Assembly (NCBI GenBank): GCA_022760335.1
Contig: JALEGE010000175.1
Location: forward strand, 1-42,652
Direction of reading: 5' to 3'
Source of the DNA: Hyphomonadaceae bacterium
Lineage (GTDB): Bacteria > Pseudomonadota > Alphaproteobacteria > Caulobacterales > Hyphomonadaceae
DNA length: 42,652 bases
A model generated the notes under the pieces. That model did not search any database. It saw only the letters and a program-made list of their open reading frames with translations, and was not told the origin of the DNA. Positions 7,997-37,257 of the stretch are shown in pieces. Position 1 is the first letter of the stretch. Each line of letters opens with the position of its first letter. Both the position numbers and the translations under genes were made by a program.

Positions 7997-8018
7997 GATC
8001 CCCTTAAATAAGGGGGTC
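7997..8018 (-). other. Hairpin at the 3' end of the AlgJ-like gene
   Basis: A ten-pair inverted repeat (GATCCCCTTA / TAAGGGGGTC, with one G-T pair) overlaps the stop codon of the AlgJ-like gene. There is no T-tract after it on the minus strand, so it may reduce read-through or stabilise the upstream mRNA rather than terminate. Confidence 0.35.
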
Positions 8019-9237: not shown

Positions 9238-9241
9238 GCGC

Positions 9242-16728: not shown

Positions 16729-16753
16729 CGGGCAGGGCCTTCTTGAAGTGGGA

Positions 16754-17607: not shown

Positions 17608-18567
17608 TTAAGCCGCGCGGCGCTGGACCACTTCACGCTCGCGCAGCATGGCCGGCTCGGTACGTGGCCCATGCTGTTTCGGAAGCTGGGGATAGAAATA
17701 GGCTTCCTTCTGGGCGCGCGACAGGCGGCGATGCTCGTTATGGCCGCGATACGTGCCCAGATACTGCATGAAGCGGAAGCCGAAAATCTCCCGGAAACGG
17801 CGCAGGAACTGTTTCTGGCGCTTGGCCGCGAGAAGATCGAAGAAGACCCCGGCGGAGAAATAACGCACCGCATCAAACCGCGTCACATGCACTTCCGGCA
17901 TGATGTCGCGCAGCACCAGCGCTTCGCGATAATAGCGCTTCTGCGTCTGGGCGAGGGTCTCTTCGTGAATATGCGTCACGGCGGCTGAAGCGACATAGCC
18001 GACGCGCCCGCCGCCTTCCACGACCTGCCGGCCGAGCACCATGTCTTCCAGGCCGGTCACATCCTCGTCGAAACGGTATTTTTCCCAGGTCGAGCGCTCA
18101 ACGGCAGCATTGGCATTATTACAGAAGAAGCCTCTTTGCGGCACCGCATCGAATTCCGGGAAATATTTGGCGAACAGACGGTGCTCGGAGAATTTTGACA
18201 CCTCATGGCCGAGCTGGCGCCCATAGGTGTATTGTGCGGTGCCGTCGATCAGCGGCTGGATCAAGTCCTGCAGCCAACGATCATGGGTCGGCACGCAATG
18301 CGCAGAGATGAAGACCAGATACTTGCCATTGGCCGCCTCGCAGCCCCAGTTCAGGGAGCGTCCGAAGGTAAATTGTGACTTGGGAATGTGAACAATGCGG
18401 CAGTCATGGGATTCGGCAATCTCGATTGTGCGGTCTGTAGATCCGGAATCCACCAGCACAATCTCATAGTCCAGATTATCCAGTTTCTGCGAGCGGCAGG
18501 CGGTAAGAGCATCATCGAACCACTTCTCTTCGTTCAGCGCCCTGAACACTACGCTCACGTCCACCAT
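17608..18567 (-). CDS. GT2 family glycosyltransferase
   Basis: A 319-residue GT-A glycosyltransferase. The start VDVSVVFRALNEEKWFDDAL, the block VLVDSGSTDRTIEIA, FGRSLNWGCEAANGKYLVF and the acceptor-side segment TGLEDMVLGRQVVEGG are typical of rhamnosyltransferase-like GT2 members. The C-terminus is basic (the segment RGHNEHRRLSRAQKEAYFY), consistent with peripheral membrane attachment. It is the promoter-proximal gene of the acid-sugar operon. The start ATG at 18567 has GGAGA a short distance upstream. A 137-base gap to the cytidylyltransferase holds nothing I recognise. Confidence 0.88.
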   Translation of the reverse strand: MVDVSVVFRALNEEKWFDDALTACRSQKLDNLDYEIVLVDSGSTDRTIEIAESHDCRIVHIPKSQFTFGRSLNWGCEAANGKYLVFISAHCVPTHDRWLQDLIQPLIDGTAQYTYGRQLGHEVSKFSEHRLFAKYFPEFDAVPQRGFFCNNANAAVERSTWEKYRFDEDVTGLEDMVLGRQVVEGGGRVGYVASAAVTHIHEETLAQTQKRYYREALVLRDIMPEVHVTRFDAVRYFSAGVFFDLLAAKRQKQFLRRFREIFGFRFMQYLGTYRGHNEHRRLSRAQKEAYFYPQLPKQHGPRTEPAMLREREVVQRRAA

Positions 18568-21020: not shown

Positions 21021-21062
21021 AACGCCATGCAGGGGCGTCGTAGTAAAGTTCAGGACGGCTTG

Positions 21063-21989
21063 ATGACGAATCTTCTTCAGGGCCTCACCATCCCTCCCGG
21101 ACTTCAAAAGAAGGCCGAAACTGTCTCGCGCATTACCGGCCGGTCACCAGAAGATATTCTGGAAGATGCCATTGAGCGCGCAGTCGCCGCGCATTTCCGC
21201 CCGCTTTTGCTGGTCTTGCAGATGGGCAAGGTGGCCTCCACAGCGATCGCTGAAGCACTGGATACGACCCGGCTATGGGATGTGGTCCATATTCATCATC
21301 TTGATGCAGGCCGACTGGAGACCATGGAAACTCGTAATGCCGAGCGTGGGGTCGAAAATGCGCCGAACTTGGTGCGTTCTCGCGCGGTGCTGGATTGGCT
21401 CGCCCAGGATCCGGGCCAGGTTCAGATTGTTAGCGCTGTGCGGGATCCGGTGGCGCGAAACCTGTCAGCCTTCTTTCAGAATGCAACGAGTTTTCTGTCC
21501 ATTGAAGAGGGTAAAGTTCGAAACCCCGCAGAGGAAGTGGCCGATATTTTCGTGCGCCGGTATCGCCATTCCAATTCGCTGGACTGGTTTGACCGAAACA
21601 TCCGGCGCGTGTTCCGACTGAATGTCTATACCAAGCCGTTTGATCATGAACGTAAGTGCCTTGTTGGGGAAAATCGGCAATGCCGCTTGATTGTGGTGCG
21701 CGCGGAAGATTCCGATGAGATCAAATCCCAGGCCCTTTGCCGGCATCTCGGTTTGAAATCGCTTGAGATCAGTCGCGCGAATGTGGGGCGCGAGAAGATG
21801 TATTCTGATACTTATGAAGCGGTGCGCACCATTCTGAAAATGCCCGAGGCAATCCTGGACGAGCTGTACTCCTCTCAGCTGGCGCAGCATTTTTACACTG
21901 GTGCTGAGCTGGAGCAGTTCCGCGCGGGTTGGCTGAGGGCCAGCCCGGAAGATGCAGGTTTATCGGTCGCGGGAGGCTTTGGGCAATGA
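21063..21989 (+). CDS. Sulfotransferase-like / capsular polysaccharide synthesis family protein
   Basis: A 308-residue protein related to the gene at 24978 on the other strand. Shared blocks are QMGKVAST (P-loop, residues 54-61; QMGRVGST in the relative), an RDPVARNLSAFF segment, WFDRNIRRVF, the RAEDSDE block and a late AQHFYTG. The P-loop and Arg-Asp-Pro segment fit a PAPS-dependent sulfotransferase or the NKWYS-type capsule family; I cannot separate these. The first 45 residues (PPGLQKKAETVSRI, then GRSPEDILEDAIERAV) look like a ribbon-helix-helix-type segment, absent from the relative. The frame is open from 21027, but the ATG at 21063 has AGGACGG ahead of it and is preferred. The stop overlaps the ABC permease start (ATGA). 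Confidence 0.68.
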   Translation: MTNLLQGLTIPPGLQKKAETVSRITGRSPEDILEDAIERAVAAHFRPLLLVLQMGKVASTAIAEALDTTRLWDVVHIHHLDAGRLETMETRNAERGVENAPNLVRSRAVLDWLAQDPGQVQIVSAVRDPVARNLSAFFQNATSFLSIEEGKVRNPAEEVADIFVRRYRHSNSLDWFDRNIRRVFRLNVYTKPFDHERKCLVGENRQCRLIVVRAEDSDEIKSQALCRHLGLKSLEISRANVGREKMYSDTYEAVRTILKMPEAILDELYSSQLAQHFYTGAELEQFRAGWLRASPEDAGLSVAGGFGQ

Positions 21990-22897
21990 GTGATGCAGGT
22001 GTTACGGAGGAGGTGCCTCGCAAACCCGCTGCCGTGCCTGCGCCACGTAGCAACCGGCCGACAGTTCATGCCACCCGCCATCGCGCTGGATTCATTCGTG
22101 CCAATGCCCGGTTACTGAAAGATGTCTGGGTCTTTCGGCGACAGATTTTCATGGTTTTCTGGCGCGATTTCAACGCTCCGCATATGCGCAGTGTGCTGGG
22201 TACGGCCTGGGCCTATATCATGCCGATGCTGCCGGTGAGTGCCTATCTATTGCTGCGCACAGTGATCAAGGTGCCCGATGAGGCCGACACGCAACTGATC
22301 GATCCGGTGATTTTTACAACCATGGGCGTGACGCTTTGGATGTTATTGCGCGATGGTGTGATGACCCCAAGTGCGTCGATCCGGAAGTACCGCAACCTCG
22401 TCGCTGGCGCACGTTTTCCGATGATTGGGGCCATTGTGGTCGGCTTCGGCCAGGTCGCGTTGGAGACCCTGATTCGCGCGGCGCTTTGTGCTGCCGCGAT
22501 CATTGCCCTGGGGTCTTATAGCCTTGCGGGCCTGCTTCCGGCCGCAGGTATTCTGGCTTGTGCCATGGTGTTGACCTTCTCGGTCGGTGTTATCCTGGTG
22601 CCGATCATTTCGGCCGTCCCGGATGTCCAGAACCTGCTACAGATCCTGTTTCGCTATCTGATCTTCTTCAGTGGCGCGATCTGGCCGGTGCCAACACTAT
22701 TCGGGTCTGATGCCTTGTATCGCTACAATCCGTTTTCGCTGTTCCTTGGGCAAACGCGGGAAGCGGTGGTCCTCGGTACAATGAGTGACTTCCAGCTTAT
22801 TCTGCCGTTTCTCATCGCGACCCCGATCGTGCTGTTGATTGCGGGGCGGATTTTTTACGCCCTACAGCCACAGATCAAGGAATCGGTTTCCGGGTAG
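21986..22897 (+). CDS. ABC-2 type polysaccharide export permease (Wzm/KpsM/RfbA-like)
   Basis: A 303-residue inner-membrane permease for a lipid-linked polysaccharide. A basic amphipathic N-terminal part (KDVWVFRRQIFMVFWRDF) precedes about six hydrophobic segments, among them TAWAYIMPMLPVSAYLLL, VTLWMLLRDGV, IRAALCAAAIIALGSYS, a long ACAMVLTFSVGVILVPIISAV segment (given in part), FRYLIFFSGAIWPV and PFLIATPIVLLIAGRIFYAL. The RDFNAPHMRSVLGTAWAYIMP start and YNPFSLFLGQTREAV segment are characteristic of the O-antigen/capsule exporter family. The ATG at 21986 overlaps the preceding stop. The ATPase gene starts 6 bases after the stop. Confidence 0.9.
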   Translation: MSDAGVTEEVPRKPAAVPAPRSNRPTVHATRHRAGFIRANARLLKDVWVFRRQIFMVFWRDFNAPHMRSVLGTAWAYIMPMLPVSAYLLLRTVIKVPDEADTQLIDPVIFTTMGVTLWMLLRDGVMTPSASIRKYRNLVAGARFPMIGAIVVGFGQVALETLIRAALCAAAIIALGSYSLAGLLPAAGILACAMVLTFSVGVILVPIISAVPDVQNLLQILFRYLIFFSGAIWPVPTLFGSDALYRYNPFSLFLGQTREAVVLGTMSDFQLILPFLIATPIVLLIAGRIFYALQPQIKESVSG

Positions 22898-22903
22898 ACT
22901 CAT

Positions 22904-24172
22904 ATGGCTAATCCTCCACTGCTGCATCTTGACCATGCCTGGAAGAAGTTCGGGCGCACCGTGGCATCGAACCGGCGTCGCCTGTCACGTTCGATGCTGA
23001 AGGGCAGCCTGTTCCTCAACCCTGGGCACGACACACTGCGGCGCGATGAATTCTGGTCTCTTCGAGATATGTCGCTGACCCTGCGAAAGGGCGAAGCTGT
23101 TGGCCTGATCGGGCGAAACGGCGCTGGAAAGTCGACCCTTTTGCGTCTGCTCGGCGGGCATATGTTGCCCGACAAAGGGCGGCTCTCGGTGAATGGCCGG
23201 CTTTCGGAACTGATCAATCTCACGGCCGGTTATCAGCCTCTTCTGAGCGGGCGGGAAAATATCAAGTTTGGCGCGATCATTCGCGGCCTGTCGGGCAAGC
23301 AGGCGCGCGCGATTATGGATCAGGTGATCGAGTTTTCCGAAATCGGCGATTTCATCGATGCACCCTTCGGCGCCTATAGCCAGGGCATGAAGCTGCGTCT
23401 GGCCTTTTCCGTTGCTGTACACGTTTCCCCGGAAATCCTGCTGATCGATGAAGTGATTGGCGTTGGCGATTACGGCTTCCGGCAAAAATGCATGGCGCAA
23501 CTGCAAAGTATGCGGGAGTCCTGTGGAATCGTCATGTGTACCCACAATACGGGGCATTTGGCGAAGTTTTGTGATCGTGTGATCGTCCTGGAAGCGGGCG
23601 AAGCCGTATTTGAAGGCGATCCTTCGAAGGCTGTGGCCTTCTATCTCGACAAGTTCGGCGCAGCTGCAGAACCAATCATCGATGAGGACACTGGCGAGGT
23701 CATTGACCTGACTGGCCGCGGACGGGAACTGGGCCCGGTTCATCATGATACGGCGTTACTTCCCGGCTTGGATACCGCCTGGGTGAATGCGGAAGGAGAA
23801 GCGGTAGAGAGCTTTTTGCCGCGCCAGGCGGTTTCGCTTCAGATCAGCTTGGAGTTTTCAGATCAATTATGCGGTGAGGAGGTACGTGCAATCCTCTTCC
23901 TCTATGACGAGGCAGCCCAACCGCTGGCGCGGCAAGCACATACTTTTACGGTTCCAGCAGAGGCTCGGCAAACGCTTAAGGTCTCCATGCCACCTCAAGC
24001 GCTCACGAGATCAAAATATCGCGCTGTCCTGCGCGTTGTGCATGAGCGCGGCTCGCTATTTCGCAATGCCATCCCAAACCTGGTGATCGACCAGAAATCC
24101 GATCGCTGGGGCCAGGTAAAACTGGAGATGAACTTTGAGGAGATGAAGTCTCTCGAGGGGACTGACCTCTAA
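22904..24172 (+). CDS. ABC polysaccharide exporter ATPase with Wzt-type C-terminal domain
   Basis: The 422-residue ATP-binding subunit that pairs with the permease encoded upstream. Walker A is GRNGAGKST (about residues 70-78), the signature region is FGAYSQGMKLRLAFS, Walker B is EILLIDEVIGVGD and the switch histidine lies in MCTHNTGH. After the ATPase domain, residues from about 265 on form an additional beta-rich domain, WVNAEGEAVESFLPRQAVSL onwards, matching the position of the Wzt carbohydrate-binding domain that recognises the finished polymer end. This makes an O-antigen-like, substrate-selective exporter more likely than a plain KpsT. The chain-terminating enzyme normally paired with such a domain is not recognised in the window. 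Confidence 0.9.
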   Translation: MANPPLLHLDHAWKKFGRTVASNRRRLSRSMLKGSLFLNPGHDTLRRDEFWSLRDMSLTLRKGEAVGLIGRNGAGKSTLLRLLGGHMLPDKGRLSVNGRLSELINLTAGYQPLLSGRENIKFGAIIRGLSGKQARAIMDQVIEFSEIGDFIDAPFGAYSQGMKLRLAFSVAVHVSPEILLIDEVIGVGDYGFRQKCMAQLQSMRESCGIVMCTHNTGHLAKFCDRVIVLEAGEAVFEGDPSKAVAFYLDKFGAAAEPIIDEDTGEVIDLTGRGRELGPVHHDTALLPGLDTAWVNAEGEAVESFLPRQAVSLQISLEFSDQLCGEEVRAILFLYDEAAQPLARQAHTFTVPAEARQTLKVSMPPQALTRSKYRAVLRVVHERGSLFRNAIPNLVIDQKSDRWGQVKLEMNFEEMKSLEGTDL

Positions 24173-24928: not shown

Positions 24929-24977
24929 ATTCGTCTCCTGGAGATCGCCCCTCGGCGCGTGTGGTGGTTGGCCCAGC

Positions 24978-25745: not shown

Positions 25746-25956
25746 ACCGTTTCCTCTCAATCAGAACTCTACAGTGTTGTATTCAAGGCCAATTGAAATC
25801 AGAGCTCAAAGGGCTGTGAAATAACTTCGATGGCCTCTATTCAGCATGCTCTTACGGCATTAACCAGTTATCGTATGTTCACTGAAAATGCGAAACACTC
25901 AATCGTCATTGACACGTCTTCCGACATCGTTTTCGCGCAGCGAAACAAACAAGATT

Positions 25957-27243: not shown

Positions 27244-30200
27244 TTAGGCAGTCTTGAGCGCTCTTGCCAGCTCTGTGAGGCGGGCATCGGCGAGGGTGAA
27301 TTTGGCGCGGTAGGAATCAACCCCTTTCAGATCGATCCGCATCGTATTGGTCTTGGCGGTAACCTTGACCGAGACATCACGGGCTTCGCTCATATCGACA
27401 GCCACCTGTCCGTCGACGAGCACCACCAGGCGCGGATCAATTTCGTTGATTGTCAGCGCCAGTTCATATTCCGCGCCGCGCTCAACGGAAACGATCGTGA
27501 AGAACTGATCCTTGTGGCTGCCATCATTGCGGTCGATCTCATAGCCATGTTTGCCATTCTTGACCTGGACCTTGTCTCCAACACACCAGCCGCGCTTTGG
27601 ATCCGCGCTGATGCCGAGTGAGACCAGATCAATTGGCTCTGCCGGACCCCGCGAAGGCTCGCTGCGCAGGGCGGATGCACCGCGATCAAAGAACAGGCCA
27701 ATCCGACCGATCCGATCGCGCGCATGCTTGCGCACGGCCTGCGTCGCGGAGTTGGCTTCTGAAACCTTGGTGACTTTTTCAGCCTCTTTCGGCGCCTTGG
27801 CTGGGCGGGCTTCCTTGCGGGTGGACGGCGCAGCTGCAGTCAAAACGTCATTGAGAATGGCCGGGCGGTTGGATTGGCGGACGGCAAAATTCCGCACACC
27901 CAGAACATGTTCACTGTCGCCTGTGTAGCGCGCAGTCCCGCCGGCGGTTTCGCGCATGACAAGCTGCGCCATCAGGGCCTGATCGGTGTTGATCTGATCT
28001 ACCGACAGCCAGACATGATATCTTCCTGGGCCGCTTGCGGTTTCTTCCAGCGCGGCGATGCCGCCAAAGGCCTCGCCATCAATCAGGGTGGAGTTCGTTC
28101 CGGCCTTGACCGCCTTGCCCATCTCCAGATCGAAAGTTGCCTCTGCGAGCATCTTGTTCTTGCGATCCGTCAGCCAGATCGAGACATAGCGTTGGCCGGT
28201 GGCTTTCACGTCCAGTTCGGCGCATACAGGCTCGCCTACGCTGGGCTTGAACTTCAGGAAAGCGCGGTGGACGCGCAGTTCGTCGGTTTCCTTGATGGTG
28301 GTGAACTGGTCTGGCTCGATCTCGCCAGCGGCCAGGCCCGCCAATTCCCAGACCTTCCCACCCGGTGTTGCCGCGCTTGCAAGCAGGCTGGCTTTTTCGG
28401 CCGGTTCAGCCTGGGCCCATAGCCGCGCCGCAATGGCTTCGGAAGAACGCACCTCACGGTATTCAACATGTGTGCAGGCGGCGTTCAGCGCGGCTTTCAG
28501 CTCAGGAACCGGCCGAGGCTCAGCCAGGGCGATCAGCATGCAGTCCGTGCTGGGGCGTGATGGGCAATATGGCGCCAGCGTGATTCGCCGCAGCGGCTTG
28601 GTGTCACCCACCCGACGGGGGTGCCAGTATTCGGCGACCAGTACCTGATAGCCGCGCTGGGTGAACCAGTTGACCAGTTCCAGTGTTTTTTCTGCCGGGC
28701 GGTCATAGCTGTCGGTCAAGATTCCCAGACAGGAAATTGCAGGCCGGGTATATTCGATCCAGCTTGGCACTGTATCAGCCATGCCGGGCATATAGTCCCG
28801 GATAATCAGGCCAACATTGCTCTCCGGCGGAATGTGATCGAGCGTTTCGACAAGCGTGTAGACTTCGCGACGGTGATTGCGTTCACCGCTCATGCCGGCT
28901 CCCGGGCGCACATCTTCCAGTTTCCAGGCGCCTTCGGGCAGTTTCGCCACGGCATCGATCACCGCGCCATAGGCCATCGGATCGCTTTCCAGCGCCGTGC
29001 CGGTGCAATTGTCTTCAGCCGCCTCGATCAACGCCTGGGCCTTGTCGATGCCGCTGAGGACAAGCTGTTTTGTCGTGTTATCGCTCATCAGGCTACGTGC
29101 CAGGGCGATTGCATCGAGCCGCGCATCTGCCGATGGCGGGGCCTGGCCGATCAGCGGCAAGGCGGACTCGCGCAAGGTTTCAGCATATTCCTGCTGCGGC
29201 TCTGACCAGTAGACTTGGTTGTCGCTCTGCGTGCCCGAAAGGATCTGCTCGCCGAGCCCAACCCAGGAATTGCTGGCAAAATAGGATTTTGCCGCCTGGG
29301 TCATGTCAATCTCGCCGCGCTTGACCTGTAAGATCGTATCATAAACGGCGCGGGCGATATGCTCGCCTTCGGGAATGTTCACAACACGGCCGAAGCCATG
29401 CTCGGTCGCGCATTCGGCCAGCCATGTGCCGCCCAGGGCGACGACTGGCGTTCCGGCATAAAGTGCATCAATCAGGAGGCCTGATGTGCGGTCGGCAAAA
29501 TCCGGTGGCAGATAGGGCAAGACCACAACATCGGCGGTGCGCAGAACCTCGATGAAGTCGGCTTCCTCGATATGTCCGGCCAGCACCTTGTAGTCGCCGA
29601 GGGCTTCGCGCTGCTCCTCCGTGGCGTTTTCGTCCAGCGGGTCTGTCCGGAAGACCACGCGGTAATTCTCCCCGCGCAGCATGGAGGCCAGTTTCGAGGC
29701 GGTGTCGAACAAAAGCTCCGAGCCTTTTTCCACCCGGTTGGCGGAGGGGAAGAAAATGCGCACCTGGTCGACCTGTTCCGGCGCGGGCGTCGCGATGGTA
29801 GCGCGGGCCTGATCATCATTGATCAGCGGGCTGGGATGGGGCGCGACCGGCACCACATGGCCCGTGCGGGCCTGCAGCGCGCGCATCTGGTGGGGCGTCA
29901 TCGCGGTCGCAAAGATGCGCCGGTCATGCTGCAGCTCTTCCAGCAGCCAGGCATATTTAGAGGCAAAGCGCGGCGACCAGACATCGGCGGTTTTCAGCCA
30001 GAAGAAGTTCACCACAATCCGGATATCGGGCCGGTCGCGCGAGATCTGGTAAAGAATGTTCAGGTGCTCAAGGCTGCCGGTATACATATAGACAATCACC
30101 TCGCCCGGCGCGGCCGCGCGCACACGGTCAATCGCGCGCTCGAATTCGGCATGGACGGCGGCCTCGACATCCTCGAACTTGTCGGTGCGGTTGCCGATCC

Positions 30201-31692
30201 GGTTGGCGAGCGTCCAGCTATTGGTGCTCAGGCACGGATCGACCGTGATGCCGTCAATCGTGACGGTGCCATCATCGGCGATCTCGCTGATCATGTCCGA
30301 GCCAAGTTGCGAATTGGCGGCCACACGATATTCGCAGCCGCGGTCCTGGATGATCGGCGCCAGCTTGGCTTCATAGTTCCAATAGTGGCCGATCTTGTCG
30401 ACAAGGTCGGGGTTCAGCGAGAGCACCGTGACCGGCGCATCGCGCTCGGCATAGCGCGGCTGGCGCAGCGGTTCGGCCGCGCCGCGCCGCCGAAGGGCCG
30501 GGACGAAGGAGGCGGTTGCGCCCGTCACCTCGCCGCCGCGCGCCTCATATTTGCGGCACATCTCCTCCACCTGGTCGCAGTGCTTTGAATAATAATCATT
30601 ATAGCTGATATTGAAGAAGCCGGGATGGGCCACTTTGATATCGGCCATCTTGTCATTGAACTGCGAGCCCTTGTGGTGGCCCCAGAAATACTGGTCCTCG
30701 TGCAGCGGGCGGCCGTCGCAGCCGGAGATCGTCATCTTGTCATAACAGCTTGCCCCGACCGGCATCATCAGCAGGGTCAGCACATTGGGCAGCGGCGCGA
30801 CGTGGAAATCCTTCTTCAGGTCGAGATTGAACTCGCCTTTTTCATAGGGCAGCGCGATGACCCGGTGGTGAAACGCGTGCGGGATATAGTGAAGGTGCAC
30901 GAAATAATCGCGCATGGGCACGAACAGGGTGAAGTCATATTCGTGCATCCGCTTGACCAGTTCTTCGCGGAAAGCAGCGGCATAGGAAGACGGGCCGGCA
31001 TGGAAAATCGGGTCGGCCGCGCAGATCACCTTCGGGTTCAGCTTGGCCATCAGCTCTTCATTGGCCACGAAGGAATTACAGGTGATGACATCGCCATCGC
31101 TGAAATCCATCCCGTCGACCTGCGAGAGCGAGGGACCGGTGCCGAAGACATGGCATTTATCGCGTGTGATTGTTTCCGTGAAAGCGAGGAATTTCGCATG
31201 GCTGTCGGCGATCACCTGGCTGATATCGCCCACCAGGCCCAATGCCGCGCTCAGCAACAGCGAGGCCTCGGTCGCGCGCGCGGTGCGGTCAGCAAGTACC
31301 AGCTTGATCTTTTCAGGCAGGGCAGCGCGTAATTCCGGCTGGCTTGAGAATACCTCATCCGGCCCGGTTTCATCATGCTCGCCAGGAATCTTCCAGACGA
31401 TCACGATATCCGATTGCTTGAGATGTTCGGTCCAACTGGTGGTCTGAAAGTCGAAATGCGCACGGATCTCCAGCTTCTGGAAGAATGTGTCGGGCGCGTT
31501 CGATGGGGCCGAGGCAGGGTCGAGATAATAGGGCGCGGAAAGCTGTCTCAGCATGCTCAGGGGCACTGAGGAGACAATGCTGAGGGATGCGATCTGGCTT
31601 ATATAGGGTGACAGATGCCAGTTGAGTCGGCTCAGCAGATCGGCGGCGTCGGCTTCATTTGTGATAGCGGGATAGACACTAATACGCTTCAC
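27244..31692 (-). CDS. Giant multidomain glycosyltransferase: GxGPSL (GT42/DUF115-like) plus GT4-like plus beta-sandwich domains
   Basis: A 1482-residue cytoplasmic-type protein with no signal peptide. Domain reading: residues 1-175 unassigned; 175-400 a GTGPSL domain (FGTGPSLSQVDG near 183-194, ITCNSF, ISGCDG) resembling the GT42/DUF115/Maf-like group; 418-800 a GT-B domain of GT4 type with its donor half FFPSANRVEKGSELLF (646-661) and the nucleotide-binding SGLLIDALYAGTPVVALGG block (736-754); 940-1050 a stretch ending RGYQVLVAEYWHPRR that recalls the C-terminal half of FkbM methyltransferases but lacks an obvious SAM site; 1130-1270 and 1365-1480 two beta-rich domains separated by a Lys/Ala linker. 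It starts with GTG at 31692, behind GGGAG. It probably adds two different sugars. Family labels for the first and third regions are tentative. Confidence 0.8.
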   Translation of the reverse strand: MKRISVYPAITNEADAADLLSRLNWHLSPYISQIASLSIVSSVPLSMLRQLSAPYYLDPASAPSNAPDTFFQKLEIRAHFDFQTTSWTEHLKQSDIVIVWKIPGEHDETGPDEVFSSQPELRAALPEKIKLVLADRTARATEASLLLSAALGLVGDISQVIADSHAKFLAFTETITRDKCHVFGTGPSLSQVDGMDFSDGDVITCNSFVANEELMAKLNPKVICAADPIFHAGPSSYAAAFREELVKRMHEYDFTLFVPMRDYFVHLHYIPHAFHHRVIALPYEKGEFNLDLKKDFHVAPLPNVLTLLMMPVGASCYDKMTISGCDGRPLHEDQYFWGHHKGSQFNDKMADIKVAHPGFFNISYNDYYSKHCDQVEEMCRKYEARGGEVTGATASFVPALRRRGAAEPLRQPRYAERDAPVTVLSLNPDLVDKIGHYWNYEAKLAPIIQDRGCEYRVAANSQLGSDMISEIADDGTVTIDGITVDPCLSTNSWTLANRIGNRTDKFEDVEAAVHAEFERAIDRVRAAAPGEVIVYMYTGSLEHLNILYQISRDRPDIRIVVNFFWLKTADVWSPRFASKYAWLLEELQHDRRIFATAMTPHQMRALQARTGHVVPVAPHPSPLINDDQARATIATPAPEQVDQVRIFFPSANRVEKGSELLFDTASKLASMLRGENYRVVFRTDPLDENATEEQREALGDYKVLAGHIEEADFIEVLRTADVVVLPYLPPDFADRTSGLLIDALYAGTPVVALGGTWLAECATEHGFGRVVNIPEGEHIARAVYDTILQVKRGEIDMTQAAKSYFASNSWVGLGEQILSGTQSDNQVYWSEPQQEYAETLRESALPLIGQAPPSADARLDAIALARSLMSDNTTKQLVLSGIDKAQALIEAAEDNCTGTALESDPMAYGAVIDAVAKLPEGAWKLEDVRPGAGMSGERNHRREVYTLVETLDHIPPESNVGLIIRDYMPGMADTVPSWIEYTRPAISCLGILTDSYDRPAEKTLELVNWFTQRGYQVLVAEYWHPRRVGDTKPLRRITLAPYCPSRPSTDCMLIALAEPRPVPELKAALNAACTHVEYREVRSSEAIAARLWAQAEPAEKASLLASAATPGGKVWELAGLAAGEIEPDQFTTIKETDELRVHRAFLKFKPSVGEPVCAELDVKATGQRYVSIWLTDRKNKMLAEATFDLEMGKAVKAGTNSTLIDGEAFGGIAALEETASGPGRYHVWLSVDQINTDQALMAQLVMRETAGGTARYTGDSEHVLGVRNFAVRQSNRPAILNDVLTAAAPSTRKEARPAKAPKEAEKVTKVSEANSATQAVRKHARDRIGRIGLFFDRGASALRSEPSRGPAEPIDLVSLGISADPKRGWCVGDKVQVKNGKHGYEIDRNDGSHKDQFFTIVSVERGAEYELALTINEIDPRLVVLVDGQVAVDMSEARDVSVKVTAKTNTMRIDLKGVDSYRAKFTLADARLTELARALKTA

Positions 31693-32020
31693 GGGGTCTG
31701 GCTCCCTGACAACTCTAAAATCTGTCGGCGCATTCTGAAACTCTCAGCTCAGGTGAGCTGTTAACAAATTATTCGCGCGCCTTTTCGGTTATGCCACTTC
31801 ATGGACCGATCTCAAGCTTTCGAGTGCGTAACATCGCGTTTTCTTTTCTTTGCCCGCAGGCTCGATGGATGCCGTCGCATATCGAGCCCAAAAGGGCAGC
31901 AGCGGAGGCAAAACACTGCGAAACGTCTTGTCAAACTGACAAAAACTCTGGAAACACTCCCTTGAAATCGGGCACTTACGGGCTTGTGTAGAGGAACCGA
32001 GACCGGGCTATAACCGTTCT
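31693..32020. promoter_or_regulatory. Divergent regulatory region between the two giant glycosyltransferase genes
   Basis: 328 non-coding bases. They hold two perfect dyads: CAGCTCA-GG-TGAGCTG at 31745-31760 and TTGTCA-AAC-TGACAA at 31928-31942. A weak promoter-like pair TTGAAA (31962-31967) and TGTGTA (31985-31990), 17 bases apart, points at the plus-strand gene. A further TGACAA lies at 31707-31712, just before the minus-strand start. No RNA gene was recognised. Confidence 0.4.
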
Positions 32021-34579
32021 ATGGCAGATACGTATGATCACGACGCCTTGCAAAGTGCACCGCATCTGGAGGCAGATTATCGCGCGCTCCTGAAGCGTGT
32101 GCCGTGGACATCGCCGAATTATCTTCCCACCGACCGTGTGCCGCTCCAGGCCAAGGTGGCTGGCATGGGGCGGGTTGCCGATATCCACAATCAGAAGCTC
32201 GACCGGATTTATCGTCCGCAAATGCGCGCACTGCGCAAGCAATATGCTGGGCAGCGACGCTGTTTCATCATCGGCAACGGGCCGAGCCTGAACCGGACCG
32301 ACCTGTCAAAGCTGAAAGGCGAAGTGACTTTCGCGACCAATGGGTTTTACCTCAAGGGGCGCGAACTGGACTGGTCGCCGACTTTCTATGTCGTTGAGGA
32401 TCACCTGGTCGCTGAAGATCGCGCCGATGACCTTAATGCCCTGAAAAACACGACCAAGCTTTTCCCAGCCTATCTCGGTTATTGCCTGAAGGAGGATGCC
32501 AATACGATCTTCTTCAATCACCGCGCGCGGGTGAGCTATCCTCATGGCTTCGATTTCTCCACAGATGCGGAGAAGGTGACCTATACCGGCTGTACGGTGA
32601 CCTTCACCTGCATGCAGCTGGCAGCCTATCTCGGCTTTCGGGAGATCTATCTCATCGGCGTCGACGCCGATTATTCCATTCCCGATGATAGCGAGATCGA
32701 GGAAACCGGCGCCACGCGGGTCATCGACATGGCCAGCGATGACCCCAATCACTTCCATCCGGACTATTTCGGCAAAGGCTATCGCTGGCACGACCCGCAG
32801 GTCGACATGATGATAGAGGCTTATCGCGAGGCGCGCCTTGTCTGCGACCAGATCAGTCAGCCAATCTACAACGCCACCAAGGGCGGCAAGTTGGAGGTTT
32901 TCGAGCGCCGCGACTATGATGGGCTCTTCACGCCAAAATCCGCGGTAAATGGTGAGGACAGCAAGGCCGTTCTTCCCGGGGTTGAGGCACCAAGCTTGGC
33001 TGCCACACATGAAACACCTTATCCGCGTGTTTTACTGATCGACATGGTTCCCATAGGTGGGGTCTCGGCCACCGGCGCGCTGAAGCGCACGCTGTTTTCC
33101 GGCTGGCCATGGGCGCGCCTTATGGAAGTCAACACAGATGGCGCGGACGCCCTGACTGTAGATGGTGGGGCGATCCCGGAAACCCGCGTCCCGCCAATCT
33201 ATTCCGATCCCAAACCGCTGATCGATCTGTGCGCGGCCTGGGACCCGGATGTTATCGTCTATCGCCCGCTGGATGACCGGCCGGACCTGCATGCCATGGC
33301 CATGGCAGTCATCGAGCGCACCGGCGCCCCGCTGATCACCTGGATCATGGATGACTGGTTGGAGCGCCTGGCTGAACGCAACAAGCGCGAATATCGGAAA
33401 ATGCTCGCCGATACCGCGCAACTGGCACAGGGCGCGCACACAAACTTCGCCATCAGCGAGTCCTTGCGCATTGCCATGGAACAGCGCCTGGGCGCCCCCT
33501 TCCATGTCCTGGCCAATGGCATCGATCCGGATATCTGGTCGGCCATTGTGCGCGACCCGCCGGGGCAGGGTGAGGAACTGGTGATCCGATATTCCGGCGG
33601 GCTCGCGCGCGACATGTCGCGAGACACTGTGTTTGCACTTGCCCAGGCGGTGGAACAACTTGCAGAGACTCGGGCCATTCGCCTGGAAATCAATACGCGT
33701 GAGCACTGGCAGCGCGAGGCAGGTGCCCTGTTCAGTCAGTTCCGCGCCACCTCGATCTCCACAACCGAGCATGATGAGCAAGCCTATTTCGAATGGCTCG
33801 CGGATGCCGATGTGCTGGTCGTGGCCTATAATTTCGATGAAGCTTCGGCTCGCTATGTCCGTCATTCCATGGGAAACAAGATTCCCGAAGTGCTGGCGGC
33901 AGGGCGTTGTGTTCTGGCGATCGGCCCACTGGATTATGCCTCGATCAACCATCTTCACCGCAGTGGCGGGGCGGTCATCGTAAAAGAGCCAGGCGTGGAG
34001 CCGATCCTGACTGTGCTCGATCAGTTTGATCGTGCGCGCTGGCGGTTGCCGGGTGTGGCAGAGGCTGCCCGCGCCTTTGCCTTCCAGAATCACGATATTC
34101 GCGAGGAGCGTGAGAAACTCCAGGACGCCCTGCGCGAGGCTGCGCATACGCGCACTCCGCCGACCTTGCCACGCAATTTCCGCCGCCTTGCGGAACTTGT
34201 CGAGCAGGGGGATCAAACAGGGGCTTCGACAGGCGAGCGTTCAGTTGAAGGAAGGGAAGATCATATGTCCAGGGGCAGTGTAAGCCCGCCCGCCGTGACG
34301 GGTTCAGGGCGGATTGGACGGATCCTGTCCTTCTATCGCAGCTGGCGCGGCCTTCTCGCCTTGCTGGCGATCGCATTGGTTGCATCGCCGGGCGCCTTGC
34401 TGGTTTCCAGTCTTGGCATGATGGGGATCGTGCTGTCCGTTCTACCAGCTGGCGCGCTGGCGTTTTGCTTTGCCATGATTGCCTATCTGCACACGGTGAT
34501 TGTCGATCATCATAATCAGATCGAATACCGCATCCGGCGTGTCGAACGGGCTGGCCGGTCTGGTGGACGCCGGCTTTAG
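32021..34579 (+). CDS. GxGPSL (GT42/DUF115-like) and GT4-like fusion glycosyltransferase with C-terminal membrane segments
   Basis: An 852-residue bifunctional-looking glycosyltransferase. Residues 80-310 form a GxGPSL domain (FIIGNGPSLNRTDL at 82-95, FATNGFYLKG, YLIGVDADYS and the His-containing DDPNHFHPDYFGKGYRWHD). Residues 335-735 are a GT-B domain: RVLLIDMVPIGG at the start, ITWIMDDWLERL, the hinge AISESLRI-type segment, VLANGIDPDIW, and the donor-side blocks IRYSGGLARDMS and GNKIPEVLAAGRCVLAIGP. After a low-complexity linker, two hydrophobic segments (about 775-830) should anchor it in the inner membrane. It is head-to-head with the 1482-residue protein, which shares the first two domains in the same order. 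Donors and acceptors are unknown; a CMP-sugar is possible for the GxGPSL domain. Confidence 0.82.
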   Translation: MADTYDHDALQSAPHLEADYRALLKRVPWTSPNYLPTDRVPLQAKVAGMGRVADIHNQKLDRIYRPQMRALRKQYAGQRRCFIIGNGPSLNRTDLSKLKGEVTFATNGFYLKGRELDWSPTFYVVEDHLVAEDRADDLNALKNTTKLFPAYLGYCLKEDANTIFFNHRARVSYPHGFDFSTDAEKVTYTGCTVTFTCMQLAAYLGFREIYLIGVDADYSIPDDSEIEETGATRVIDMASDDPNHFHPDYFGKGYRWHDPQVDMMIEAYREARLVCDQISQPIYNATKGGKLEVFERRDYDGLFTPKSAVNGEDSKAVLPGVEAPSLAATHETPYPRVLLIDMVPIGGVSATGALKRTLFSGWPWARLMEVNTDGADALTVDGGAIPETRVPPIYSDPKPLIDLCAAWDPDVIVYRPLDDRPDLHAMAMAVIERTGAPLITWIMDDWLERLAERNKREYRKMLADTAQLAQGAHTNFAISESLRIAMEQRLGAPFHVLANGIDPDIWSAIVRDPPGQGEELVIRYSGGLARDMSRDTVFALAQAVEQLAETRAIRLEINTREHWQREAGALFSQFRATSISTTEHDEQAYFEWLADADVLVVAYNFDEASARYVRHSMGNKIPEVLAAGRCVLAIGPLDYASINHLHRSGGAVIVKEPGVEPILTVLDQFDRARWRLPGVAEAARAFAFQNHDIREEREKLQDALREAAHTRTPPTLPRNFRRLAELVEQGDQTGASTGERSVEGREDHMSRGSVSPPAVTGSGRIGRILSFYRSWRGLLALLAIALVASPGALLVSSLGMMGIVLSVLPAGALAFCFAMIAYLHTVIVDHHNQIEYRIRRVERAGRSGGRRL

Positions 34580-34638
34580 AGACTGAATCTCCGGGCATAG
34601 GCGCGGACTTATCCGACCGGGTGTGGCCCGCGCGCACT

Positions 34639-34658
34639 GTGGATCGCAAACGGTCCAC
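34639..34658 (+). other. Hairpin upstream of the DUF2793 gene
   Basis: An 8-bp stem (GTGGATCG / CGGTCCAC, one G-T pair) closed by a CAAA tetraloop ends 14 bases before the ATG at 34673, just ahead of the GGAG ribosome-binding site. It may influence translation of the following gene. Confidence 0.3.
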
Positions 34659-34672
34659 GGAGATGTCCCCAG

Positions 34673-36109
34673 ATGCCTACCGCCACGCCAAGCCTCGGCT
34701 TGCCCTATCTTGCCGCCTCCCAGGCGCAGAAACATGTCACGCTGAATGAGAGCCTGCGGGTGCTGGAGGCGCTGGTGCAGCTCAGCGTTGCCAGCGCCAC
34801 GGACGCCTTGTCGGGCGCGCCCGATGAAGGGCTTTGCCAGATCGTCCCTGTTGGCGCCACGGGCGATGGGGCAGGCCATGACAGCGAAATTGCCGCCTAT
34901 CTCGACGGCGCCTGGCAGTTCCACAGCCCGCAGGAAGGCTGGCGCGCCTGGGTGCGCGATACCGGCATTGAGATGGTCTATGACGGCGCGGCCTGGGTTG
35001 AGGTGCCGAACGCGACAACCAGTTCCCAGCTCGGCATCAATGCCAGCGCGGACGGGACCAACCGCCTTGTGGTGTCGTCCCCAGCCGCGCTGTTCAATCA
35101 TGACGGCAATGGCCACCAGCTGAAGATCAACAAGGCCAGCGCGGGTGATACGGCCAGCCTCCTCTTTCAGACCGACTTTTCCGGCCGCGCGGAATTCGGC
35201 CTCGCTGGTGATGATGCCTTTCGCGTGAAGGTCAGCCCCGATGGCAGCAGCTGGTATGACAGCCTGGCCGCCGATCCCGATAGCGGCCGCATCAGTTTCC
35301 CCGCGGGGCTCGCATCCCCGCCGCCTGCGGAAAACCTGCTTTTGAACGGCGATTTCGCGATCAATCAACGCGGCTTTGCGGGCGGATCGCTCGGCGCGAC
35401 AGTCTATGGCATGGACCGCTGGCGCGGCGGGGCGGGCGGGTGCAGTGTGACGCCGACAGCCGCCGGTGTGCAGCTCGTGTCCGGCAATTTCCAGCAGGTT
35501 CTGGAGCTTGATCTTGAGGCCGGCGCCACGCTGGTGGTGAGCTTTGAGTCCGGCGACACATCCAGCCTGACGGTCAGCTGTTTTGGTGCGACGGGCACGC
35601 TCCTGTCCACGGGCGGGCGGCACTATGCCGTCTTCACCGTGCCTGGCAGCCCGCCCGCGCGCACCGATCTGACCTTTTCCGGCAGCGGCGACATCGCGAA
35701 GGTCAAGCTGGAACACGGCGCCTGGCCGACCCCCTGGGCGCCGCGCGCGCCGGAGCTGGAATTCCTCGCCTGCGCGGCCTATTTCGAGCAGCGAAACACC
35801 GGCACGGCGGCCTCCTCGCCCTTTGCCATGGGCGTGGCGAGCGCCAGCGCGCAGTTTTCCACCTTCATTTCCTATCTGCCCAAGCGCGACTTTCCCAGCG
35901 TGACCTTCTCAGGCGCCTTTCACCTCTTGGGGCTTGGCATCACCAATGATGATATCGACACGATCAGTGCGTTTGCGCAGACACTCACAGGGATGGAAGT
36001 GCGCATCGCCCTGCTGGAAACGCTGACGGTCGGGCAGGCCGGGTTGCTGCGCTCACAAGGCGTTGCGTCGGCCTATATCGCCATCGATGCGGAGTTGCAT
36101 GGGCTTTAG
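34673..36109 (+). CDS. DUF2793 domain protein with tail-fibre-like C-terminus
   Basis: A 478-residue protein. The N-terminal 115 residues match the DUF2793 pattern (LGLPYLAASQAQKHVTLNES, then GAWQFHSPQEGWRAWV and YDGAAWVEV), found mainly in Alphaproteobacteria and their phages or gene transfer agents. From about residue 225 the sequence has the layout of phage tail-fibre/receptor-binding modules: NLLLNGDFAINQRGF, YGMDRWRGG, a beta-sandwich, then VKLEHGAWPTPWAPRAPELE and AAYFEQR. No other phage gene is near, so this is not a recognisable prophage. A glycan-binding surface or secreted role fits the locus but is inference. The ATG at 34673 has GGAG upstream. Confidence 0.78.
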   Translation: MPTATPSLGLPYLAASQAQKHVTLNESLRVLEALVQLSVASATDALSGAPDEGLCQIVPVGATGDGAGHDSEIAAYLDGAWQFHSPQEGWRAWVRDTGIEMVYDGAAWVEVPNATTSSQLGINASADGTNRLVVSSPAALFNHDGNGHQLKINKASAGDTASLLFQTDFSGRAEFGLAGDDAFRVKVSPDGSSWYDSLAADPDSGRISFPAGLASPPPAENLLLNGDFAINQRGFAGGSLGATVYGMDRWRGGAGGCSVTPTAAGVQLVSGNFQQVLELDLEAGATLVVSFESGDTSSLTVSCFGATGTLLSTGGRHYAVFTVPGSPPARTDLTFSGSGDIAKVKLEHGAWPTPWAPRAPELEFLACAAYFEQRNTGTAASSPFAMGVASASAQFSTFISYLPKRDFPSVTFSGAFHLLGLGITNDDIDTISAFAQTLTGMEVRIALLETLTVGQAGLLRSQGVASAYIAIDAELHGL

Positions 36110-36162
36110 TGAAAAGAGGATTGGGAGAGCACCGAAAACCGTCGACACCTGCGAAAGCATGT

Positions 36163-36236
36163 GTCCATGGACCACTCCCTCAATCGGGAGCGCTTGGCCG
36201 CATCTTTCGTCCATGGATGCCTGCCTGCGCAGGCAT
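36163..36236. repeat. Intergenic palindromic element
   Basis: The 165-base gap between two convergent genes carries several palindromes: GTCCATGGAC (36163-36172), CTCCC-N6-GGGAG (36175-36190), a second GTCCATGGA (36209-36217), and ATGCCTG-N6-CAGGCAT (36217-36236) whose core CCTGCGCAGG is itself a perfect palindrome. This looks like a REP/intergenic palindrome or a bidirectional terminator; copy number elsewhere cannot be judged. Confidence 0.4.
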
Positions 36237-36274
36237 TGGCGGATGTCTGGGCCGGAGCCAAAATTGACGATGCT

Positions 36275-37096
36275 TCAAGTCGCCGGCTGGAGCGCGGCAT
36301 AAGCCTCGCTGCGCTTGGGAAACACGGTGAGCTGCCCGCCGACCGTGCCGTCGACAATCTGGCGGCCAGCGGCCTCATAAGCTTTGCGGGCATTGTGATA
36401 GGCCTCTTCGGACTGTTTCAGGTCCGGCAGCTGCCAGACATCGCCTTTGGGGAAATAGTCTGAGGTGAAATGATTGGTATCGTCCGCGCGGCGCTGCACC
36501 GGCGTATGCGGGGAGAGGCGCGCCTCATGGGTTTCATAATCATAGCTGTGATCGATGCCGAGCAGGGTGACTTTCGACCAGCCGAGCCAATAGGCAAACT
36601 GCATGGCGACATAGGTCACCGTGCCGCCGGTCGCCACCGCATCCATGATGCAGGTGCGGAAATCGCGCGCATCCAGCGTGCGCAGGAAGAGCGCATTGTC
36701 TGCCCCGCCAAGCGGCGCGCGCGCGGCCCAGCTTGTGACCAGCGTACAGGGCAGCTTGCCGAGATGTTCGGCAGATTGTTCGATCATGGCCGGGTTCACG
36801 CAGGCGAGGAAATCCGGCGTGATGCCGAAGTCCTCAAAACCGAGAAACAGCCGGTTGAGGCCAATACAGGGATGCCCGCGCACCTGGGAGAAATCAGTGC
36901 CCTTCAGGCTGGGCCCTGTGCCGATGATAAAGCCATGCGCGCCGGCCTGGGAGTTGTGCAGGTCGCGCAGTGTGCGGCGGCTTGCGAGGGCACGCGGTGA
37001 GAAGGTCCAGCTTGGGTCACGCAGGGCGCGATAGGTGTGCGAGCGGGCAATACCACCTAACCCCACAGGACTCAACAAACGCTCTAACCGGCTCAT
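36275..37096 (-). CDS. Single-domain GxGPSL (GT42/DUF115-like) protein
   Basis: A protein of about 273 residues. It holds only the GxGPSL domain found at the front of the two giant glycosyltransferases: FIIGTGPSLKGTDF (about 55-68), CIGLNRLF, TYVAMQFAYWLGWSKVTLLG, IDHSYDYE and the His block DDTNHFTSDYFPKGDVW, which closely parallels the block in the protein at 32021. I infer a glycosyltransferase or glycan-modifying role like the GT42-type enzymes, but the DUF115 group also contains a pterin diphosphokinase-like lineage. The start is uncertain: ATG at 37096 (MSRLERLL), 37114 or 37213 are all in frame and none has a convincing ribosome-binding site; I prefer 37096. It converges with the DUF2793 gene. 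Confidence 0.72.
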   Translation of the reverse strand: MSRLERLLSPVGLGGIARSHTYRALRDPSWTFSPRALASRRTLRDLHNSQAGAHGFIIGTGPSLKGTDFSQVRGHPCIGLNRLFLGFEDFGITPDFLACVNPAMIEQSAEHLGKLPCTLVTSWAARAPLGGADNALFLRTLDARDFRTCIMDAVATGGTVTYVAMQFAYWLGWSKVTLLGIDHSYDYETHEARLSPHTPVQRRADDTNHFTSDYFPKGDVWQLPDLKQSEEAYHNARKAYEAAGRQIVDGTVGGQLTVFPKRSEAYAALQPAT

Positions 37097-37257
37097 CGGC
37101 ACCACTTTTCGCATTCCATTGCCACAAGACACAAGGCGTTTGGCTGGCCCGGCTGGCGAATGGTCCCCGAAGAGAAAAAGCCATGAGAGCGAGCCGGCGT
37201 AAAGCCGTGGCATGTTTTTCTGTACGCTTTGTATACCCCGTTTGGATTTCGTGATGC

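What the first reader, a model, noticed from the sequence alone, without database searches (positions are those of the whole stretch)
27244..37096. Three GxGPSL (GT42/DUF115-like) proteins in 10 kb, two of them giant fusions with GT4-like domains
The proteins at 27244, 32021 and 36275 all have a GTGPSL or GNGPSL loop followed by a Gly-Val/Ile-Asp block, and two share a DD(P/T)NHF histidine block. In the first two the domain is followed by a GT-B, GT4-like domain in the same order, and the genes are head-to-head. GT42 sialyltransferases and the Maf/DUF115 group are known for single-domain enzymes. A joined GxGPSL + GT4 architecture beside a CMP-sugar synthetase-like gene could be a two-step glycosyltransferase for an undescribed repeat unit.
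Basis: partly seen in the sequence, partly recalled or inferred. Interest (0 to 1): 0.75.

Follow-up and report, generated by a model that had tools for sequence, protein, structure and literature searches.

The report
Multi-part sugar-adding enzymes in polysaccharide cluster
Two very large bacterial enzymes each join a sialyltransferase-like (CMP-sugar) domain to an ordinary sugar-transfer domain, and across many bacteria their relatives travel with the same set of genes, which looks like an uncharacterised route to a rare acidic sugar for the cell coat.

Summary
P1 (27244-31692, -), P2 (32021-34579, +) and P3 (36275-37213, -) each carry a DUF115/MptE-like (PF01973-type) domain. By profile search this domain is related to GT42 sialyltransferases (CstII, E 1.9e-5) and Maf (5MU5, E 8e-4). 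P1 and P2 continue into a GT4-type GT-B domain (AlphaFold + Foldseek). The fusions are not artefacts: both have full-length co-linear relatives in Acuticoccus, 23 of 78 fetched genome loci carry the P2-type fusion, Niveispirillum encodes the two parts as overlapping neighbour genes, and two genomes fuse P1-type and P2-type halves into one protein of about 2,300 residues. The strongest new evidence is linkage to a NeuA-like CMP-sugar synthetase subfamily: in 357 alphaproteobacterial genomes, it and this DUF115 clade occur in exactly the same six. The synthetase sits in a conserved run: GT2, synthetase, 2-hydroxyacid dehydrogenase, aldose-1-dehydrogenase-like SDR, lactonase (window 14.1-18.6 kb). 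Best reading: multi-module glycosyltransferases of an ABC-exported surface polysaccharide. The DUF115 module would transfer a CMP-activated 2-ulosonic acid, and the GT4 module the neighbouring sugar. Donor, acceptor and catalysis are unproven. The individual domains are known; their combination and the linked pathway appear undescribed.

The parts
27244..31692 (-). P1, 1482 aa (GTG start): N-terminal alpha/beta domain + divergent DUF115-like domain + GT4 GT-B domain + possible degenerate FkbM-like stretch + C-terminal region
30463..31242 (-). P1 aa 151-410: divergent DUF115/GT42-like domain; GTGPSL at 31126-31143; GCD; FWxH block
   Evidence: hhalign to the P2-type profile prob 96, E 2.5e-9; related domains in L069, L076, L117, L084
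29143..30438 (-). P1 aa 419-850: GT4-type GT-B domain
   Evidence: PF13692 2.2e-6, above cut-off; AF2 + Foldseek MshA E 9.4e-14
28363..29115 (-). P1 aa 860-1110: possible degenerate FkbM-methyltransferase-like remnant (RGYQVLVAEYWHP)
   Evidence: motif shared with the FkbM modules of relatives; hhalign prob 52 only: tentative
27247..28362 (-). P1 aa 1111-1482: C-terminal region of unknown fold, conserved only in the Acuticoccus homologue
32021..34579 (+). P2, 852 aa: DUF115 + GT4 GT-B + two C-terminal hydrophobic segments
32192..32935 (+). P2 aa 58-305: DUF115/MptE-like (GT42/Maf-related) domain; GNGPSL 32273-32290, DDPNHF 32738-32755
   Evidence: PF01973 7.8e-13; A3 profile hits CstII 1.9e-5; Foldseek BFVD DUF115 protein TMt 0.72
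32999..34192 (+). P2 aa 327-724: GT4-type GT-B domain
   Evidence: AF2 pLDDT about 95 in most of the domain; Foldseek BshA 6.2e-13, PglA, PimA
34349..34483 (+). P2 aa 777-821: two hydrophobic, probably membrane-spanning, segments
   Evidence: hydropathy
36275..37213 (-). P3, 312 aa: stand-alone DUF115/MptE-like protein; GTGPSL 36905-36922, DDTNHF 36467-36484
   Evidence: PF01973 1.1e-9 above cut-off
17608..18567 (-). GT2 glycosyltransferase, first gene of the linked module
   Evidence: PF00535 3.5e-24; 49-50% to plasmid relatives
16754..17470 (-). NeuA/KdsB-like cytidylyltransferase (CMP-sugar synthetase subfamily)
   Evidence: PF02348 3e-15; closest solved relatives NeuA; co-occurs with DUF115
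15799..16752 (-). D-2-hydroxyacid dehydrogenase (PGDH/glyoxylate reductase/2-ketogluconate reductase-like)
   Evidence: PF02826 9.3e-51
15034..15795 (-). SDR most like D-xylose/glucose/sulfoquinovose 1-dehydrogenases
14113..15009 (-). SMP-30/gluconolactonase-type lactonase
   Evidence: PF08450 3e-72; solved relatives SMP-30/Cgr1, regucalcin
21929..22897 (+). ABC-2 permease (Wzm-like) of the polysaccharide exporter
   Evidence: PF01061 4e-6
22904..24172 (+). ABC ATPase (Wzt-like) of the exporter
   Evidence: PF00005 3.3e-19

Best explanation
P1 and P2 are multi-module cytoplasmic glycosyltransferases of an ABC-exported surface polysaccharide, and P3 is a stand-alone relative. In each, the DUF115 domain (GT42/Maf-related, CMP-binding GxGPSL loop) most likely transfers a CMP-activated 2-ulosonic acid supplied by the NeuA-like enzyme at 16754-17470. 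The GT4 domain transfers the adjoining sugar from an ordinary NDP-sugar, so that two consecutive linkages are made on one polypeptide. P2 is probably membrane-anchored by its C-terminus. P1 and P2 are the two halves of one larger machine, which in some bacteria is a single protein of about 2,300 aa. Inferred donor route in the window: an SDR oxidises an aldose to its lactone, the SMP-30 enzyme opens it to the aldonic acid, the 2-hydroxyacid dehydrogenase makes the 2-keto acid, and the NeuA-like enzyme charges it with CMP. Shown: domain identities, folds, fusion reality, gene linkage. Inferred: donor, acceptor, catalysis, pathway order.
For: DUF115 profile hits CstII (1.9e-5), CstI, 9c08 and Maf 5MU5 in PDB sequences. 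Maf PF01973 enzymes use CMP-nonulosonic acids and accept CMP-Kdo, and the domain resembles Cst-II (PMC11339370). GT4 domains from AF2/Foldseek. Fusion conserved: Acuticoccus co-linear homologues, 23 of 78 loci besides the window, overlapping neighbour genes in Niveispirillum/G309, L069/L076 P1D-GT4-DUF115-GT4 proteins. Linkage: CT in 36 of 51 long DUF115 loci against 1 of 20 control glycosyltransferase loci, Fisher p 3.8e-7. Phyletic identity: the same 6 of 357 genomes, four of them unseeded in the CT profile. GT2-CT-HADH contiguous in the same order at 28 loci plus the window, including Bacteroidota and Planctomycetota. Alternative module with an HpaI aldolase (14 loci), as in L120 with CT, HAD phosphatase and HADH, the layout expected for a Kdo-like 2-keto acid. 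SDR, lactonase and HADH similarities.
Against: No enzyme activity or polysaccharide structure is available. In the window the CT module is 10-15 kb from P1-P3. The module's own GT2 could be the user of the CMP-sugar. P1's DUF115 domain is divergent and below the Pfam threshold, and its Acuticoccus counterpart lacks the FWxH block, so this module may be degenerate in some members. SDR (20 of 51) and lactonase (10 of 51) are less constant than CT and HADH, so the oxidative route is weaker than the CMP-sugar link. The direct structural match of DUF115 to CstII could not be ranked.
Confidence: 0.6

Rival explanations
1. The DUF115 module adds a single CMP-ulosonic acid cap that terminates the chain, and the GT4 (and FkbM) modules polymerise or modify it, as in the polymerase/terminator WbbB; the ulosonic acid is not part of the repeat unit.
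For: WbbB is a membrane-anchored multi-domain enzyme whose N-terminal CMP-Kdo module caps the chain, and the cap is read by the ABC transporter (PMC9587256). The relative in L069 carries methyltransferase modules, and its gene directly follows Wzm/Wzt-type genes with a Wzt C-terminal domain.
Against: Several different DUF115 genes per cluster (P1, P2, P3; three annotated in Thalassovita) suggest more than one linkage.
Confidence: 0.25
2. The GT2 of the module, not DUF115, uses the CMP-sugar; DUF115 proteins act with another donor.
For: GT2 is the immediate neighbour of the synthetase gene at 28 loci and in the window.
Against: Aldolase-type clusters keep CT and DUF115 although the module's GT2 is absent or only weakly similar, e.g. 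L100, L112, L120, L121; in G187 the CT and DUF115 genes touch. From general knowledge, GT2 enzymes use NDP-sugars while GT42/Maf use CMP-sugars.
Confidence: 0.12
3. These are flagellin or other protein glycosyltransferases of the Maf type.
For: Same Pfam family as Maf; profile match to 5MU5.
Against: No flagellar gene found in the window; the setting is polysaccharide export, sulfotransferases, GDP-mannose dehydratase; fused to polysaccharide-type GTs.
Confidence: 0.05
4. They are 6-hydroxymethylpterin diphosphokinases (MptE-like), as automatic annotation says.
For: Pfam name of PF01973 and database annotation.
Against: Profile similarity to MptE (8sd5) is insignificant (E 0.22) while GT42 is 1.9e-5; no pterin genes seen in the window; fusion to glycosyltransferases.
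Confidence: 0.02
5. The NeuA-like enzyme activates something other than a 2-keto sugar acid (for example a phosphorylated polyol or a phosphonate), so the transferred group is not an ulosonic acid.
For: Other cytidylyltransferases in cell-surface clusters make CDP-polyols or CMP-phosphonates (PMC6697681, PMC10918830); a 2-hydroxyacid dehydrogenase is unusual in ulosonic acid pathways.
Against: The phosphonate enzymes belong to PF12804/PF01467, this one to CTP_transf_3 with NeuA as closest solved relatives; alternative clusters carry an HpaI-type aldolase next to it.
Confidence: 0.15

Closest known systems
Maf flagellin glycosyltransferases (PF01973, central Maf_flag10 domain; 5MU5)
   Same: Same Pfam domain, GxGPSL loop, CMP-ulosonic acid donors reported for Maf
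   Different: Maf has its own flanking domains and acts on flagellin; here the domain is joined to GT4 (and FkbM) modules in polysaccharide clusters
GT42 sialyltransferases CstI/CstII (PF06002)
   Same: Profile-level similarity over GNGPSL...GxD (E 1.9e-5)
   Different: Window proteins do not match PF06002; no sialic acid synthase seen in the window; fused to GT4
WbbB (GT99) and KpsC (GT107) multi-module Kdo transferases
   Same: A CMP-ulosonic acid module fused to other catalytic modules in ABC-exported glycan assembly; membrane-anchored in WbbB
   Different: Kdo modules there are retaining modified GT-B enzymes (GT99/GT107); here the candidate module is GT42/DUF115-like
NeuA / KdsB / PseF cytidylyltransferases
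   Same: CTP_transf_3 family; NeuA solved structures are the nearest
   Different: Separate subfamily (far below PseF and KdsB equivalog cut-offs), embedded in a GT2-CT-HADH-SDR-lactonase run and not with NeuB/KdsA
XylB/XylC-type pair (aldose 1-dehydrogenase + aldonolactonase)
   Same: SDR closest NCBIfam model is D-xylose 1-dehydrogenase; an SMP-30 lactonase is beside it
   Different: Here linked to a CMP-sugar synthetase and polysaccharide genes, not catabolism; SDR is below the equivalog cut-off

Membership tests
PF01973 MptE-like/DUF115 | Score above Pfam gathering cut-off (34.6 bits) for P2 and P3 | tested here: met
   P2 49.0, P3 38.7 bits
PF01973 MptE-like/DUF115 | Score above Pfam gathering cut-off for P1 | tested here: not met
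   No PF01973 hit for P1; related by hhalign and by HMM cross-hits
GT42 | Significant profile similarity to solved GT42 enzymes | tested here: met
   1ro8 1.9e-5, 2p2v 2.7e-4, 9c08 4.6e-4 with the P2/P3-type profile
GT42 | Match to Pfam CST-I (PF06002) | tested here: not met
   No PF06002 hit in P1-P3; one relative below cut-off (L073)
GT42 | Catalytic residues (His base, Tyr pair) and CMP-sugar transfer | not testable with these tools
   His of DxNHF is invariant in 15 sequences and lies about 29 residues after GxD, but no residue-level structural alignment was possible
Maf flagellin glycosyltransferase | Flagellin or flagellar gene neighbourhood and Maf three-domain layout | tested here: not met
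   Neighbours are polysaccharide genes; layout is DUF115-GT4
MptE pyrophosphokinase | Sequence match to solved MptE | tested here: not met
   8sd5 E 0.22
GT4 (GT-B) | Two-Rossmann GT-B fold like solved GT4 enzymes | tested here: met
   P2: BshA 6.2e-13, PglA TMt 0.71; P1: MshA 9.4e-14 (mean pLDDT only 71.6)
GT4 (GT-B) | Pfam GT4/GT1 group above cut-off | tested here: inconclusive
   P1 PF13692 28.4 against cut-off 27 (met); P2 PF13439 25.4 against 28.5 (below)
GT99/GT107 Kdo transferases | Detectable match to a Kdo-transferase or capsule-synthesis family | tested here: not met
   No such Pfam or NCBIfam match in P1-P3
CMP-ulosonate synthetase (NeuA/KdsB/PseF) | CTP_transf_3 domain and NeuA as nearest solved structures | tested here: met
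   PF02348 57.1 bits against 22.6; NeuA 8.5e-22 with the subfamily profile
CMP-ulosonate synthetase (NeuA/KdsB/PseF) | Equivalog membership in PseF or KdsB | tested here: not met
   PseF 60.9 against cut-off 205.7; KdsB-type model 31.1 against 193
WbbB-like multi-module polymerase/terminator | CMP-ulosonic acid module plus other GT modules on one chain, with ABC exporter | tested here: inconclusive
   Architecture and ABC genes present; donor and catalytic activity untested

The most novel reading that the evidence does not exclude
A widespread, undescribed CMP-ulosonic acid pathway: sugar oxidation (aldose 1-dehydrogenase, aldonolactonase, 2-hydroxyacid dehydrogenase) instead of aldol condensation makes a 2-keto aldonic acid, a dedicated NeuA-like enzyme activates it, and a polysaccharide branch of the Maf/GT42 superfamily, often built into giant multi-GT proteins, polymerises it.
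Probability: 0.3. Interest if true: 0.8.

Novelty: new variant of a known kind. Interest (0 to 1): 0.62.

Why it matters
Many proteins in databases are named 6-hydroxymethylpterin diphosphokinase (at least 570 relatives in one scan); in this clade they are very probably CMP-sugar glycosyltransferases. The tight pairing of a transferase clade with one NeuA-like subfamily and a fixed operon predicts a specific activated sugar that can be tested in vitro with few enzymes. If the sugar proves to be a non-canonical ulosonic acid, it adds a new building block and a new route to CMP-sugars in bacterial surface polysaccharides from several phyla, and multi-module enzymes useful for making them.

Tried and rejected
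Close relatives (40 genomes of genus, family and order) almost never carry P1/P2, so no local evolutionary series was available. BLAST with P1 in the class sample found only parts outside its DUF115 domain, mainly GT4; P1's DUF115 relatives came from plasmids and from flanks of the DUF115 loci. NCBIfam gave nothing for P1-P3. Foldseek against PDB with whole two-domain models listed only GT-B hits, so it could not rank CstII; the viral library showed DUF115/MptE-like matches. MptE function, Maf-type flagellin modification and sequencing artefact for the fusions were considered and rejected. The FkbM remnant in P1 is weakly supported (hhalign prob 52) and kept only as a remark. Literature searches for DUF115, MptE-like, Maf_flag10 and the gene module found no description of this combination; the library holds open-licence papers only.
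Full report
Observation. The three ORFs exist as stated. P2 and P3 carry Pfam MptE-like (PF01973, the former DUF115) domains above the curated cut-off; P1 does not reach it, but has the GTGPSL loop at aa 184. P1 and P2 are divergent neighbours with a 328-bp gap. In the genome holding the window these are the only PF01973 hits.

Is the GxGPSL domain GT42/Maf-like? An alignment of 15 DUF115 domains from this clade (A3) has invariant or nearly invariant GNGPSL, N53, GxD and DxNHF. Searched as a profile against PDB sequences it hits CstII (1ro8, E 1.9e-5), CstI (2p2v, 2.7e-4), 9c08 (4.6e-4) and Maf 5MU5 (8.4e-4), whereas MptE (8sd5) is at 0.22. The published Maf structure is described as sharing Cst-II similarity in its PF01973 domain, and Maf enzymes use CMP-nonulosonic acids and can take CMP-Kdo (PMC11339370). 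P1's domain belongs to a divergent sister group (relatives in Acuticoccus, in Azospirillum next to neuB, and in L069, L076, L117 and L084); hhalign joins it to the main clade (prob 96, E 2.5e-9). It replaces the DxNHF block by an FWxH block, missing in the Acuticoccus copy.

Second half. AlphaFold of P2 aa 1-725 with 39 sequences gives mean pLDDT 89.7, two confident domains and a low-confidence linker at 305-330. Foldseek shows the second domain is GT4-type GT-B (BshA, PimA, PglA, HepE). P1 aa 1-860 gives a moderate model (pLDDT 71.6, five sequences) whose second half is again GT4-like (MshA). Against viral models, P2 matches DUF115/MptE-like proteins. GT-B hits filled the PDB list, so a ranked match to CstII by fold was not obtained.

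Are the fusions real? Yes. Acuticoccus sp. I52.16.1 encodes co-linear full-length homologues of both P1 (30%, 1474 aa) and P2 (44%, 787 aa) on one plasmid. A genome scan gave 78 loci; 23 of them, plus L062 with permuted order, carry DUF115 and the P2-type GT4 in one ORF. In Niveispirillum lacus (G309/L072) and L060 the same two parts are separate genes overlapping by 4 bp. In L069 and L076 single proteins of 2320 and 2302 aa read P1-type domain, GT4, DUF115, GT4, and L069 continues into FkbM methyltransferase and a second methyltransferase. P1 and P2 of the window are therefore likely two halves of one machine. P2 ends in two hydrophobic segments where relatives have the FkbM module.

Linkage to a CMP-sugar pathway. 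The window has a run GT2 - NeuA-like cytidylyltransferase (CT) - 2-hydroxyacid dehydrogenase (HADH) - SDR - SMP-30 lactonase at 14.1-18.6 kb. CT, HADH and GT2 are 49-64% identical to the genes near MptE-like proteins on plasmids of Thalassovita, Sulfitobacter and Gemmobacter. Among 51 DUF115 loci of at least 18 kb, 36 hold the CT; among 20 control loci of about 20 kb around ordinary alphaproteobacterial glycosyltransferases, 1 does (Fisher p 3.8e-7). GT2-CT-HADH are contiguous in the same order at 28 loci and in the window, and the SDR follows at 16 of these and in the window. The set spans Pseudomonadota, Bacteroidota and Planctomycetota (titles).

A test that does not rely on proximity: the CT profile and the DUF115 profile were run on the same 357 alphaproteobacterial genomes. 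The CT subfamily (E < 1e-80; next best 5.8e-41) is in G000, G130, G187, G263, G309 and G366; the DUF115 clade (best E < 1e-80; next best genome 4.7e-22) is in exactly the same six, in six families. The CT profile had been seeded from only two of them, so four agreements are independent (1 in 6.5e8 by simple combinatorics, not corrected for phylogeny or transfer). Caveat: the DUF115 profile was seeded from all six genomes, and the CT subfamily was defined from genes near DUF115.

What the donor may be. The CT belongs to CTP_transf_3 with NeuA as nearest solved relative, but is not PseF or KdsB by NCBIfam cut-offs. The SDR is most like D-xylose 1-dehydrogenase and, among solved structures, includes sulfoquinovose 1-dehydrogenase among its best relatives; the lactonase is like SMP-30/Cgr1 and regucalcin, the HADH like PGDH, glyoxylate reductase and 2-ketogluconate reductase. 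Read together (inference) they would oxidise an aldose to a 2-keto aldonic acid, which the CT charges with CMP. A second arrangement (L120 and others; also Acuticoccus) puts an HpaI-type aldolase, a HAD phosphatase and a HADH with the CT, with DUF115 in the same cluster, the layout one expects for a Kdo-like 3-deoxy-2-keto acid. NeuB and KdsA were each seen at only one of 78 loci. Both arrangements converge on a 2-keto sugar acid; this is inference from family functions and needs assay.

Mechanism. Most likely the DUF115 module transfers the CMP-activated acid and the GT4 module the neighbouring sugar, on a lipid-linked chain exported by the ABC transporter at 21.9-24.2 kb (the lipid carrier is inferred). 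Whether the acid is in the repeat unit or a terminal cap is open: WbbB, a membrane-anchored enzyme with a CMP-Kdo module joined to two GT modules, uses it as a cap that the ABC transporter recognises (PMC9587256), and the methyltransferase modules of relatives would also suit chain termination.

Comparison and novelty. Each part is known; a methyltransferase+DUF115 fusion in a polysaccharide-type cluster was tabulated before (PMC4000134). I found no description of DUF115-GT4 fusions, of the P1-type/P2-type giant, or of the GT2-CT-HADH-SDR-lactonase module (open-licence papers only). Hence: new variant of a known kind (multi-module CMP-ulosonate glycosyltransferases), with a possible new CMP-sugar pathway as the more novel reading.

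Noticed in passing
window 10953-12029 (+): ORF matching PF07388 alpha-2,8-polysialyltransferase (E 1.4e-9): a second candidate CMP-sugar-type transferase in the same cluster, between MBOAT/AlgX-like genes and the CT module.
   Followed up: no
window 3152-7324 (+): 1390-aa protein with FG-GAP repeats, RTX calcium-binding repeats and cadherin-like domains, likely secreted.
   Followed up: no
window 8560-8649 (-): tRNA-Ser(CGA) predicted inside the span of the AlgX-like ORF 8017-9288, suggesting that ORF starts or ends differently or that the cluster lies at a tRNA site.
   Followed up: no
window 21027-21989 (+) and 24978-25760 (-): Two NKWYS 'putative capsular polysaccharide synthesis' proteins with sulfotransferases at 7347-7934 and 24179-25045: the polysaccharide may be sulfated; a putative capsular polysaccharide synthesis family gene is also on the Thalassovita plasmid.
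   Followed up: partly
window 34673-36109 (+): DUF2793 protein lying between P2 and P3 in a polysaccharide cluster.
   Followed up: no
L102 6257-12148, L105 6269-12280, L073 1692-8087: Giant proteins with two DUF115 domains; L102 also has GT2 modules and L073 GT4 and methyltransferase modules: further multi-module glycosyltransferases.
   Followed up: partly
NZ_CP094833.1, NZ_CP051182.1, NZ_CP020698.1, NZ_CP076366.1 (L052-L056): The DUF115/CT module sits on polysaccharide plasmids of several alphaproteobacteria, suggesting horizontal spread.
   Followed up: partly
BFVD A0A6J5L5C1, A0A5B8IGA8: MptE-like/DUF115 proteins occur in Caudovirales phages and a Mimiviridae member.
   Followed up: no
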